DNA of 14,399 nt from Desulfobacterales bacterium (GTDB taxonomy: Bacteria > Desulfobacterota > Desulfobacteria > Desulfobacterales > JAUCGF01). The position numbers and the translations under genes are program-made. Below, one piece after another: positions 5,625 through 12,615 of the stretch. How positions within the stretch are numbered: position 1 is the first letter of the stretch; each line of letters begins with the position of its first letter. The DNA lies in contig JAOZRC010000058.1 of NCBI GenBank assembly GCA_029940345.1, forward strand, positions 1 through 14,399, given 5' to 3'. The notes below the pieces were generated by a model that saw nothing but the letters and a program-made list of their open reading frames with translations, searched no databases and had not been told where the DNA came from.

Positions 5625-7124
5625 TTGAAACAATTTATGCGCATATTTGCAAAAACGATATGCTTGCTAAGCTTGGGAATTATTTTATATGTCAATGGCG
5701 TTGATGCAGCCAAAGTCCGTAAGGCTGTCGTCGCGGGCCAGTTTTATCCGTCCGACCGCGCGCAACTGACGCAAATGATTGAAAGCTTAACCCGCCAGGC
5801 GCAGCAAACCCAAATTGACACACCCAGGCAAGGCGTTTTGAAAGCGCTGATTTTGCCGCACGCCGGCTACGTCTATTCCGGATTGACTGCCGCCCATGCC
5901 TCACATGTCCTTTCAGAAAATCAGTTTAACAAGGTTGTTTTATTAGGACCGGATCATCGCGTGGGCTTTCCCAATGGCGCGATTACCGATGCCGAAGCTT
6001 ACGAAACACCGCTGGGGCGGATCAAATTGCATGAAGACGCCGCCAAACTGTTGCAAACTGACCTGTTTCAAACAGTGCCCGCTTCTGATCGCAGCGAACA
6101 TTCACTGGAAGTGGTGCTTCCCTTTTTACAATATTATCTGAAAGAATTTGAACTGGTTCCGATCGTTTTAGGACGAGGAGATGTCAAAGGCATGGCGACC
6201 GCTATCAACGCGCGGCTTGATCTGAAAACGCTGCTTGTCGTCAGTTCCGATCTATCTCACTTTCTTTCCTACGATTTGGCGGTTGCTTACGACAAAGAAA
6301 CGCTCAAAATGATTACCAGTTTAAAACCCGATCCATTGCTACAGCGGGACAACGCCGCCTGTGGCGTAGTCCCGATAGCGGTTTTGCTCCATCTGGCCAA
6401 CCAGTACGGATGGCGTCCGCAATTGCTTCATTATTCTAACAGCGGCGACACCGCAGGAGATCACAAACGCGTTGTGGGCTATGCGGCAATCGCCTTTTAC
6501 GGAGGATCCCCAGTGAACGCGACTGATGCAAAGAAAAACAATGAAAACCTGACTTTTCACGACGACCAGGGACAGGCGCTGGTCAAATTGGCACGCCATA
6601 CCATTGCTGCACGACTTGGTAAAAAAGCACCTTTGCCTGAATCTGCGGTGACCGCACTCGAAGCCAAAGAACTTAAAAGCCGTCGCGGCACGTTTGTCAC
6701 TTTGACCATTAACGGCCAACTCAGAGGCTGTATCGGCAGTTTGAATGCTGTGGAATCAGTGGCAGAGGGTGTGAAACGCAACGCTGTCAATGCGGCTTTC
6801 GGTGATCCTCGTTTTAACAAGCTACAACCTGCGGAACTGGAAAAAACGGATATCGAAGTCAGCATTCTCACCGAACCGCAACCATTGGCATACAAGGATG
6901 GGGCTGACTTAATCGCCAAATTACGGCCTGATATTGACGGACTGATTATCCGTAAAGGCTCGGCCAGCGCAACTTTCCTACCCCAGGTATGGGAGCAGTT
7001 GCCGGATACTAAAGCGTTTCTTTCCCATTTATGCCGTAAAGCGGGATTGGCCGCCAACGCTTGGGAAGACGGCCAATTAGAGGTTCTGACCTATCAGGTC
7101 CAGTATTTCCATGAGGAAAAATGA
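5625..7124 (+). CDS. amrB-amrA: Exported AmrB-AmrA fusion (Memo domain + AMMECR1 domain)
   Basis: The product is 499 residues and joins two AmmeMemoRadiSam components. Residues 5-28 are a Sec-type signal peptide (positive start, hydrophobic stretch LLSLGIILYVNG, likely cleavage after VDA), so the mature protein should be outside the cytoplasm. Residues ~33-292 are the Memo domain, related to extradiol-type dioxygenases: H79 in PHAGYVYSG, H111 in GPDHR, EHS at 158-160, SSDLSH at 207-212, and C246. H79, H111 and C246 correspond to the metal-site residues described for human MEMO1. A linker (~293-312) leads to an AMMECR1 domain (~315-495) with its LRGCIG hallmark at 366-371. The biochemical role of the system is not established. 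The start is TTG with a strong ribosome-binding site. The 3' end overlaps the next gene by 14 bp, pointing to one operon. The fusion of B and A supports a physical partnership. Confidence 0.92.
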   Translation: MKQFMRIFAKTICLLSLGIILYVNGVDAAKVRKAVVAGQFYPSDRAQLTQMIESLTRQAQQTQIDTPRQGVLKALILPHAGYVYSGLTAAHASHVLSENQFNKVVLLGPDHRVGFPNGAITDAEAYETPLGRIKLHEDAAKLLQTDLFQTVPASDRSEHSLEVVLPFLQYYLKEFELVPIVLGRGDVKGMATAINARLDLKTLLVVSSDLSHFLSYDLAVAYDKETLKMITSLKPDPLLQRDNAACGVVPIAVLLHLANQYGWRPQLLHYSNSGDTAGDHKRVVGYAAIAFYGGSPVNATDAKKNNENLTFHDDQGQALVKLARHTIAARLGKKAPLPESAVTALEAKELKSRRGTFVTLTINGQLRGCIGSLNAVESVAEGVKRNAVNAAFGDPRFNKLQPAELEKTDIEVSILTEPQPLAYKDGADLIAKLRPDIDGLIIRKGSASATFLPQVWEQLPDTKAFLSHLCRKAGLAANAWEDGQLEVLTYQVQYFHEEK

Positions 7125-10442: not shown

Positions 10443-12615
10443 TATAATGAAAAAAAATCAATCCCAATTTTATCTGATAAACGTCGCGGCAGTTATCGGA
10501 GGCGTCCTACTCCTTACCCTGTTGTCAATTATACAAAAAACCTATTGCGGCATTCCATTAGAACTTGAAGGATTTATCGCACCTATATTTTTTGGCGCAT
10601 TTGCGGGTCTGATTATCGGGTTGCTTTATTCGCGTATGGCTCGTCTGAATAATCGGTTGACATCCAATCTGAAACAACTGTCAGCAAAGAATATGGTATT
10701 GCAGGAAAGTGAAGAAAACCTGAGAATCACTTTAAATTCAATTGGTGATGCTGTCATTGATACAGATGTCGAAGGATGCGTGATGCGCATGAATCCGATG
10801 GCGGAAAAACTGACCGGATGGGAAATTGCTGATGCCCTTGGTTGTCCGCTAGACAAAGTGTTTGTCATTATTGATGAACTGACCCAATCTTCCTTGGAAA
10901 GCCCTTATCAGTGTGTATTGCGTGAAAAAGATGTGGTCGAACAAGCCGAAAGTGTGCTTTTAATCGCCAAAAACGGCACAACCTATCCGATTACAGATAG
11001 CGCCGCCCCGATTCTTAATACCGATGGTGTTATCACTGGAATTGTTGTGGTGTTTCAGGATGTTACTGAAGAACGGCGAGCCCAGAAAGCGGCGAATTCC
11101 ATCGACAAGAATTATCGCAACCTTATCGAAGGTTCCATTGAAGGCATTCTGATCCATAAAGATTTTAAACCGTTGCTCGTGAATAAATCCTATGCTGAAA
11201 TACATGGTTATTCCGTCGATGAAATCCTTGCAATGGAATCGATTTTTCCAATTTTTGCCAGCCATGAACGATCACGCTTAATAGACTATTATAAAGCCCG
11301 CACAAGAGGCGAGGATGCTCCCAGACAATATGAATATCAAGGCGTGCGTAAAAATGGCGATATCATTTGGTTGGATATGCGCGCAATGTTAATTGAATGG
11401 CGGGAAGAGTCAGTTGTTCTAACAACCATTTTTGACATTACCAAACGAAAGCGTATCGAAAAAGACAAGGCCAAATTGGAAACCCAATTTCAGCAGGCGC
11501 AGAAGTTTGAAGCGACCAGTACATTGGCGGGTGGCGTTGCACATGATTTTAACAATTTGTTGATGGGGATTCAGGGAAACGCTTCACTTATGTTAATGTA
11601 CGCGGATATTCCCCCGGCTTTTATAGAAAAATTGAAAAATATTGAGCATTATGTGCAGCGTGGCACCGAACTTACCCAACAACTGCTGACGCTGGCCCGG
11701 GGCACCGTATTGGAAGTGCGGCCGACGGATTTAAATGCCTCGATCAATAGAAGCGCGAAACTGTTTTCGCGCACCCATAAAGAAATCACCATCCATCAGA
11801 ACATGCAAGCTAATCTTTACAAAGCAGATGCGGACCAAGGCCAGATTGAGCAAGTGTTTCTCAATCTTTTTGTGAATGCTTTCCATGCGATGCCCTCCGG
11901 CGGCGACCTTTACCTTGAAACCCAAAATACTTATATTAACAAGGAATCCCCAATGCCATTGATCTTGCCGGCCGGTCATTATGTGCGACTCACGGTTACG
12001 GATACAGGTATGGGTATGGATCGGGAAACCCAGGCCAAAATATTTGATCCGTTTTTTACGACAAAATCAAAAGGTGAGGGCACGGGGTTAGGTCTGACAT
12101 CAGTATATGGCATTATCAAAAAGCATGGCGGCGTAATCAACGTTTACAGTGAAAAAGGGGAAGGTACGACGTTTAATATCTATCTACCGGCATCCGGAAA
12201 ACTGGAAACCGACGAAACCGAAGAAATCATCGATGACACCATAGAAGGCGGCAAGGAAACTATTTTATTGGTTGATGATGAAGATATTGTCATCATCGTC
12301 GGCGGGGAGATGTTAGAGATTTTGGGTTACACGGTATTGACAGCCCATAACGGTCTGGAAGCCCTTGATATTTACAAAGCTGATCAGGATCGTATTGATC
12401 TGGTGATCCTGGATATTATTATGCCTCAAATGGGGGGTGAAGAAACTTTTGAACAGTTAATGGCGATCAATCCGAATGCCGCAGTGTTGCTTTCCAGTGG
12501 TTACGCCATTAACGGCAAGGCCGAACGGATCATAAGCAAAGGATGTCGTGGTTTCATTCAGAAACCCTTTGATATCAGACACCTGTCTCAAAAAGTCAGA
12601 GCGACGTTGAAATAA
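10426..12615 (+). CDS. Membrane hybrid sensor histidine kinase (PAS-PAS-HisKA-HATPase-REC)
   Basis: From ATG at 10426 the product is 729 residues. Two membrane segments (~16-36 and ~50-68) leave almost no periplasmic sensor loop. PAS domains follow at ~97-217 and ~226-342, so sensing is probably cytoplasmic or within the membrane. The phosphorylated histidine is H373 in LAGGVAHDFNNLL. The ATPase domain (~471-588) has NLFVNAFHAM, DTGMGM and GEGTGLGL. A C-terminal receiver (~611-728) has DDED, phospho-acceptor D663 in VILDIIMP, and K713 in QKPF. No output domain is present, so the signal must pass to a separate partner, not seen here. GTG at 10414 extends the frame by four codons; ATG at 10447 is also possible. 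The 10426 start has GCGGG upstream and overlaps AmrS by 17 bp, which suggests cotranscription with the Amr cluster. Confidence 0.92.
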   Translation: MKKNYNIMKKNQSQFYLINVAAVIGGVLLLTLLSIIQKTYCGIPLELEGFIAPIFFGAFAGLIIGLLYSRMARLNNRLTSNLKQLSAKNMVLQESEENLRITLNSIGDAVIDTDVEGCVMRMNPMAEKLTGWEIADALGCPLDKVFVIIDELTQSSLESPYQCVLREKDVVEQAESVLLIAKNGTTYPITDSAAPILNTDGVITGIVVVFQDVTEERRAQKAANSIDKNYRNLIEGSIEGILIHKDFKPLLVNKSYAEIHGYSVDEILAMESIFPIFASHERSRLIDYYKARTRGEDAPRQYEYQGVRKNGDIIWLDMRAMLIEWREESVVLTTIFDITKRKRIEKDKAKLETQFQQAQKFEATSTLAGGVAHDFNNLLMGIQGNASLMLMYADIPPAFIEKLKNIEHYVQRGTELTQQLLTLARGTVLEVRPTDLNASINRSAKLFSRTHKEITIHQNMQANLYKADADQGQIEQVFLNLFVNAFHAMPSGGDLYLETQNTYINKESPMPLILPAGHYVRLTVTDTGMGMDRETQAKIFDPFFTTKSKGEGTGLGLTSVYGIIKKHGGVINVYSEKGEGTTFNIYLPASGKLETDETEEIIDDTIEGGKETILLVDDEDIVIIVGGEMLEILGYTVLTAHNGLEALDIYKADQDRIDLVILDIIMPQMGGEETFEQLMAINPNAAVLLSSGYAINGKAERIISKGCRGFIQKPFDIRHLSQKVRATLK

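What the first reader, a model, noticed from the sequence alone, without database searches (positions are those of the whole stretch)
5625..12615. Amr cluster coupled to a membrane aminopropyltransferase-like protein and a sensor kinase
Four genes overlap by 14, 13 and 17 bp: Memo-AMMECR1 fusion, membrane spermidine-synthase-like protein, AmrS radical SAM enzyme, hybrid kinase. The overlaps and domains are seen directly. The AmmeMemoRadiSam trio is a named system with no settled reaction. My inference is that this unit modifies a metabolite or envelope molecule at the membrane, with the kinase reporting on the process. It is the strongest candidate here for an undescribed system.
Basis: partly seen in the sequence, partly recalled or inferred. 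Interest (0 to 1): 0.75.

Follow-up and report, generated by a model that had tools for sequence, protein, structure and literature searches.

The report
Radical SAM operon built for export
A conserved bacterial operon encodes the uncharacterised Memo-AMMECR1-AmrS protein set with export-signal motifs on its soluble proteins and a membrane protein between them that is predicted to be shaped like a transporter, so this radical enzyme chemistry, usually thought of as cytoplasmic, would likely run outside the cytoplasm.

Summary
The four overlapping genes are real. Three of them (Memo-AMMECR1 fusion, membrane protein, AmrS) form a conserved operon; the hybrid kinase does not belong to it. AmrS carries a twin-arginine (Tat-type) N-terminus: strict RRxF in 68 of 70 assessable named relatives, variants in the other 2. 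The Memo-AMMECR1 fusion carries a Sec-type signal (67 of 68 assessable). The membrane protein models (pLDDT 89.8) as an MFS-type transporter with a spermidine-synthase-fold domain that charge rules place in the periplasm in 73 of 73 sequences. That domain keeps nucleoside-binding acids but lacks the catalytic aspartate, so it is probably not an aminopropyltransferase. In a phylum sample AmrS splits into signal-less and Tat-type forms, and one side of the tree is Tat-type but for two rows. Memo near AmrS has an N-terminal signal or anchor in 15 of 15; the 30 best-scoring Memo, all unfused, in 0 of 30. Prediction: an exported radical SAM module at the outer face of the inner membrane, with the MFS-type protein moving SAM or a SAM-derived compound. 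Export is well supported by sequence; substrate, SAM supply and reaction are untested. My searches found no paper describing an exported AmrS.

The parts
5612..5617 (+). Shine-Dalgarno-like AGGAGG, 7 bases before the TTG start of the Memo-AMMECR1 gene
5625..5711 (+). Sec-type N-terminal signal of the Memo-AMMECR1 fusion (basic start, hydrophobic core, small residues at the end)
   Evidence: same feature in 67 of 68 assessable named relatives
5724..6491 (+). Memo domain, metal-ligand residues conserved
   Evidence: H49, H81 and C216 of the slice invariant in an alignment of 73, window included; H49 and H81 align with human MEMO1
6582..7109 (+). AMMECR1 domain of the same protein
7111..9258 (+). 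membrane protein: 7 helices, spermidine-synthase-fold domain, then 6 modelled helices of which the last is long enough for two (MFS-type)
   Evidence: conserved family, 73 aligned, window included
7813..8535 (+). spermidine-synthase-fold domain predicted to face the periplasm; Asn371 where aminopropyltransferases have the catalytic Asp
9246..9320 (+). Tat-type signal of AmrS: MDKINRRQFICCSAALLATPLSAQA opens the frame
   Evidence: RRxF in 68 of 70 assessable relatives
9246..10442 (+). AmrS radical SAM enzyme
   Evidence: TIGR04337 331 bits over cut-off 220
9663..9686 (+). CX3CX2C radical SAM motif of AmrS (C140, C144, C147)
   Evidence: invariant in an alignment of 68, window included
10414..12615 (+). 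hybrid sensor kinase; overlaps amrS here but is not a conserved part of the operon

Best explanation
This is a three-gene operon for a predicted exported branch of the AmmeMemoRadiSam set: a Memo-AMMECR1 fusion with a Sec-type signal, an AmrS radical SAM enzyme with a twin-arginine motif, and between them a membrane protein predicted to have an MFS-type fold and a spermidine-synthase-fold domain facing the periplasm, which together would likely carry out radical SAM chemistry at the outer face of the inner membrane. Proposed working: AmrS would fold and gain its Fe-S clusters in the cytoplasm and cross by Tat (signal seen in the sequence, export inferred). Memo-AMMECR1, with its metal ligands conserved, would cross by Sec and act as AmrS's partner or substrate (inferred). 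The membrane protein would carry SAM, or a SAM-derived compound, across the membrane and hold it on its outer domain for AmrS (inferred; weakest step). The kinase is a lineage-specific neighbour.
Against: No localisation data and no trained signal-peptide predictor here. My lax Tat test is met by 59 of 575 other ORFs (51 of 575 after shuffling), so single cases mean little. In the wider clade many motifs are KR rather than RR: of the best 120 listed database relatives 29 are strict RRxF, 91 variants, 0 without, and that query itself held the signals. 19 of 38 Tat-type AmrS have none of the partner genes within 7 kb, 11 of these 19 with a flank under 6 kb. Two signal-less AmrS (L148, L150) sit inside the Tat side of the tree next to Memo genes. 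SAM and a low-potential reductant are not known in the periplasm (recalled). Nothing shows what the membrane protein carries.
Confidence: 0.6

Rival explanations
1. The set is exported as proposed, but the membrane protein does not move SAM: AmrS leaves the cytoplasm already loaded with SAM (used as a recycled cofactor), and the MFS-type protein moves the set's substrate or product.
For: MFS fold; the domain keeps E319 and D346 (73 of 73 each) but that fits several nucleosides or products; 25 of 38 Tat-type AmrS have no such membrane protein within 7 kb, so it may not be needed for AmrS activity.
Against: A SAM-binding-type fold placed beside a SAM enzyme is the simplest reason for that domain; no substrate is known.
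Confidence: 0.25
2. All proteins act in the cytoplasm; the RR and hydrophobic stretches are membrane anchors or chance.
For: The lax Tat pattern is met by about 10% of other ORFs; no experiment.
Against: RRxF kept in 68 of 70 assessable relatives, and no Tat-type start in 41 of 80 sampled AmrS, 39 of which also lack partner genes; Memo, a separate domain, shows signal or anchor in 15 of 15 near AmrS versus 0 of 30 of the best-scoring unfused ones; topology agrees independently, 73 of 73.
Confidence: 0.1
3. The membrane protein is a working aminopropyltransferase making a polyamine-like compound for the envelope, modified by the Amr proteins.
For: Spermine_synth match and spermidine-synthase fold.
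Against: Asp at position 371 in 0 of 73 window-type sequences and 1 of 13 divergent members; 87 bits against a cut-off of 472 for NF002956.
Confidence: 0.04
4. A four-gene signalling unit in which the kinase reports on the Amr reaction.
For: Overlapping genes in this window; also in L004, and a kinase lies between the membrane protein and AmrS in L025.
Against: Adjacent and co-directional in 2 of 78 loci, 57 of which have at least 1 kb beyond the trio; hydropathy gives only about 12 residues between its two N-terminal helices.
Confidence: 0.01

Closest known systems
AmmeMemoRadiSam set (TIGR04335, TIGR04336, TIGR04337)
   Same: All three protein families present above their cut-offs in one operon.
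   Different: Memo fused to AMMECR1; AmrS and the fusion carry export-type signals; a fourth, membrane partner. Signal-less AmrS of the same phylum rarely have these neighbours (2 of 41 with Memo or AMMECR1, 0 of 41 with the membrane protein).
Polyamine aminopropyltransferase with membrane domain (NF002956/PRK03612) and soluble SpeE
   Same: Same domain fold; partial profile match.
   Different: Far below cut-off, catalytic Asp replaced, conserved N-R-x-x-T motif, second membrane half added.
Fused MFS/spermidine synthase (NF037959)
   Same: By its name, MFS-type helices joined to a spermidine-synthase domain.
   Different: Window protein 24.7 bits against a cut-off of 40; here the domain sits between two sets of helices. 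Two divergent relatives beside Tat-type AmrS (L174, L176) do exceed that cut-off (48.9 and 51.7 bits).
MFS transporters (SV2A, PepTSt, FLVCR1)
   Different: 9 to 12% identity; large spermidine-synthase-fold insert.
Glycyl radical enzyme activases (PflA TIGR02493, YjjW TIGR04041)
   Same: Nearest other curated families to AmrS; pyruvate formate-lyase activase is its only PDB sequence relative at E 0.001.
   Different: 48 to 56 bits against cut-offs of 232 to 250; no export signal is described for them (recalled).

Membership tests
AmmeMemoRadiSam set | Memo (TIGR04336), AMMECR1 (TIGR04335) and AmrS (TIGR04337) over curated cut-offs | tested here: met
   245, 199 and 331 bits against 26, 99 and 220
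AmmeMemoRadiSam set | known common reaction | not testable with these tools
   none of the 5 papers that name the set is shown by its listing to study it (listing only)
Radical SAM enzymes | CX3CX2C cluster motif | tested here: met
   C140, C144, C147; invariant in an alignment of 68 AmrS, window included, and in 13 of 13 diverse Tat-type AmrS
Tat substrates | N-terminal (S/T)RRxFLK-like motif with hydrophobic stretch | tested here: met
   INRRQFICC in the window; RRxF in 68 of 70 assessable relatives
Tat substrates | Tat machinery in the genome | tested here: met
   TatC TIGR00945 222.4 bits over cut-off 132.7; TatA/B not searched
Tat substrates | Tat-dependent transport | not testable with these tools
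   needs experiment
Polyamine aminopropyltransferases | catalytic Asp of the DxxDP motif | tested here: not met
   position 371: N 67, S 3, H 2, C 1 of 73; D in 1 of 13 divergent members; the residue's role is recalled
Polyamine aminopropyltransferases | curated cut-off of NF002956 | tested here: not met
   87.1 bits against 472
Fused MFS/spermidine synthase NF037959 | curated cut-off | tested here: not met
   window protein 24.7 bits against 40; of 4 divergent relatives scanned, L174 (48.9) and L176 (51.7) pass, L159 and L196 have no listed match
Major facilitator superfamily (fold) | MFS helix arrangement | tested here: met
Major facilitator superfamily (fold) | transport activity | not testable with these tools
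   needs experiment
Glycyl radical enzyme activases | curated cut-offs TIGR02493 and TIGR04041 | tested here: not met
   48.2 against 231.75 and 55.7 against 250.2

The most novel reading that the evidence does not exclude
A complete radical SAM system that works outside the cytoplasm: Tat delivers the Fe-S enzyme, Sec delivers its metal-binding partner, and a dedicated MFS transporter with a SAM-binding outer domain exports SAM to fuel it. Neighbouring exported radical SAM enzymes and NapH-like electron carriers in related genomes would make periplasmic SAM radical chemistry a general, overlooked compartment of metabolism in this phylum.
Probability: 0.3. Interest if true: 0.93.

Novelty: new variant of a known kind. 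Interest (0 to 1): 0.78.

Why it matters
Radical SAM enzymes need SAM, an intact 4Fe-4S cluster and a strong reductant, which are regarded as cytoplasmic (recalled). An exported branch would mean that cells place all three outside, and would point to an unknown SAM exporter. It also makes the old question of what Memo, AMMECR1 and AmrS do directly testable: the exported set narrows the substrate to something reachable from the periplasm, and offers a compact three-gene operon to delete. The same families reach human MEMO1, whose primary molecular function is stated to be unknown (PMC11081632, abstract start), and human AMMECR1.

Tried and rejected
Kinase as a system part: rejected. Working aminopropyltransferase: rejected on the missing Asp. 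The first structure model, with 15 close relatives, was poor (pLDDT 60.8) and was not used; 60 diverse rows gave the model used. My first Tat classifier miscalled L156, L164 and L200 as signal-less, L206 as hydrophobic, and could not read L193 and L210; the second replaced it, and the counts reported are from it. The literature gave nothing on an exported AmrS: listings (5 papers; 4; 240 papers hold 3 of 4 terms, 25 listed; 0; 6; AMMECR1: 162 papers, 40 listed; 0; 1; 54, 15 listed); passages were read only in PMC10924467 (a neighbour-gene mention) and PMC11081632. One search was a listing on MEMO1 and iron. Flanking genes up- and downstream of the trio in the 78 loci cluster into small families of at most 8. 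The SAM-carrier step could not be tested.
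Full report
WHAT IS IN THE WINDOW. Profile searches confirm the domains. AmrS and both halves of the fusion pass the NCBIfam cut-offs of the AmmeMemoRadiSam families. The membrane protein matches the spermidine synthase domain but is far below the cut-offs of the aminopropyltransferase families.

EXPORT SIGNALS. The AmrS frame opens with MDKINRRQFICCSAALLATPLSAQA, one codon after a stop; the next Met lies about 70 residues on, at the first cysteine motif and beyond a conserved stretch, so the signal is part of the gene. The fusion opens with a basic, then hydrophobic stretch ending VDAA. 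A scan of named genomes with an alignment of the membrane protein returned 78 loci. The scan used the membrane protein, so its presence is by construction; the neighbours are not. In 71 of 78 AmrS follows on the same strand (in L025 after an inserted kinase gene); in 5 the contig ends first; in 2 (L028, L050) it is absent with about 10 kb of room, but both genomes hold a Tat-type AmrS elsewhere. Memo and AMMECR1 are fused in 71, separate in 3, AMMECR1 alone in 1, neither in 3. Of the 71 AmrS, 68 carry RRxF, 2 a variant (L065, L076) and 1 cannot be assessed (L055). Of 74 Memo, 67 carry a signal, 6 are cut, and 1 (L055, at a contig start) shows none.

A WIDER SURVEY. AmrS is nearly universal in a sample of the phylum: 285 of 297 genomes; so is Memo, 285 of 297. 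The membrane protein alignment matches 119 of 297 at E 1e-10, but weaker matches may include other spermidine-synthase-like proteins; only 17 score above 650 bits. I took the first 80 listed AmrS places (of about 150 listed, more unlisted) with about 7 kb on each side where the contig allowed, a sample biased to high scores. By N-terminus 38 are Tat-type, 41 have no signal and 1 is cut. Memo, AMMECR1 or the membrane protein lies within 7 kb of 19 of the 38 and 2 of the 41 (Fisher p 5.5e-6). Of the 19 Tat-type without such a neighbour 11 have a flank under 6 kb; of the 39 signal-less, also 11. Gene order differs between groups, which argues for a working link and not mere shared descent. The commonest neighbour families are Memo/AMMECR1 (22 ORFs: 18 by Tat-type, 3 by signal-less, 1 by the cut AmrS) and the membrane protein (13 of 13 by Tat-type AmrS). 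Of 17 Memo ORFs in these 80 loci 15 have a readable N-terminus, and 15 of 15 have an N-terminal signal or anchor (12 near Tat-type, 2 near signal-less, 1 near the cut AmrS); the 30 best-scoring Memo, all unfused, have none.

TREE. A tree of 100 AmrS, built only from the first cysteine onward so that the signal cannot bias it, puts all 58 Tat rows and 2 signal-less rows (L148, L150) on one side of a branch (96/92; the bootstrap had not fully settled), with 2 changes of label against 32.3 in shuffles. Twenty of the Tat rows are the window and named operon loci, 38 are from the survey. The window's own genome holds one AmrS of each type and TatC. As a further check, all 120 listed database relatives of an alignment of Tat-type AmrS carry an RR, KR or RK motif, 29 of them strict RRxF; that query contained the signals, and 8000 matches were found in all, a capped number. 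Control: the lax pattern occurs in 59 of 575 other ORFs and 51 of 575 after shuffling, so the case rests on conservation and on the agreement of three proteins, not on any one motif.

AMRS AND MEMO. All three radical SAM cysteines and ten further cysteines of AmrS are invariant in an alignment of 68. In Memo, H49 and H81 of the slice align with the iron ligands of human MEMO1 (ligands H49, H81, C244 from PMC11081632, passages read). C216 is invariant and is the likely third ligand, although it lies outside the printed alignment.

OTHER EXPORTED PARTNERS. In 9 of the 80 loci, all Tat-type, a second radical SAM protein of another family lies near AmrS and itself begins with a Tat-like stretch, judged by eye. 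A weaker relative beside AMMECR1 in L076 has no such start. A NapH/MauN-like membrane ferredoxin lies nearby in 5 loci and DUF362 proteins in 3, again all Tat-type. These would suit electron delivery at the membrane (inference).

HOW IT MOST LIKELY WORKS. Shown: the gene set, its conservation, the signal-like N-termini, the split of AmrS and Memo. Predicted: the fold, export of AmrS by Tat and of the fusion by Sec, the outward-facing domain, MFS-type transport. Inferred: AmrS acts on or with Memo-AMMECR1; the membrane protein supplies SAM or carries a related compound. AmrS resembles glycyl radical activases most among other curated families, which makes a partner protein a plausible target.

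THE KINASE. A related kinase is adjacent and co-directional in 2 of 78 loci (L004 and L025) and one gene away in L046 and L068; 57 of the 78 have at least 1 kb beyond the trio. It is not part of the system.

NOVELTY. No paper found describes an exported AmrS or this operon (open-licence PubMed Central only, listings only except for passages of two papers). The families are known; the exported branch with its membrane partner is a new variant.

Noticed in passing
L167:5587-6642 and the same family in L152, L160, L161, L164, L179, L182, L205, L213: A second radical SAM family, not AmrS, with a Tat-like N-terminus, encoded near Tat-type AmrS in 9 of 80 loci. Only the general Radical_SAM Pfam model matches L167.
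   Followed up: partly
L147:4568-5446, L170, L185, L189, L220: NapH/MauN-like membrane ferredoxin near Tat-type AmrS in 5 of 80 loci, none near signal-less AmrS; a possible electron source.
   Followed up: partly
L174:8149-9156, L214:8249-9265, L210: DUF362 proteins near Tat-type AmrS in 3 of 80 loci; those of L174 and L214 begin with Tat-like stretches of their own.
   Followed up: partly
L003:5233-6246: Second AmrS of the window's own genome, without signal and without Memo nearby; the genome shows only one Memo match, which is then that of the window's exported fusion.
   Followed up: partly
window 310-5297, minus strand: Divergent cluster with two ketosynthases, a dehydratase-like and a thioesterase-like protein, reminiscent of polyene or fatty-acid type gene sets (recalled).
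   Followed up: no
window 3070-3993, minus strand: 307-residue protein without a Pfam or NCBIfam match lying between the two ketosynthase genes.
   Followed up: no
window 12646-14226: AAA_35-type ATPase with a C-terminal region without a Pfam match, just downstream of the kinase.
   Followed up: no
L025:9867-12341: A hybrid kinase related to the window's lies between the membrane protein and AmrS, so kinases may have joined this operon more than once.
   Followed up: no
L148, L150, L162: AmrS without a visible signal (L148, L150) or cut at its 5' end (L162), beside Memo proteins that have an N-terminal membrane segment; possible secondary loss or wrong start.
   Followed up: no
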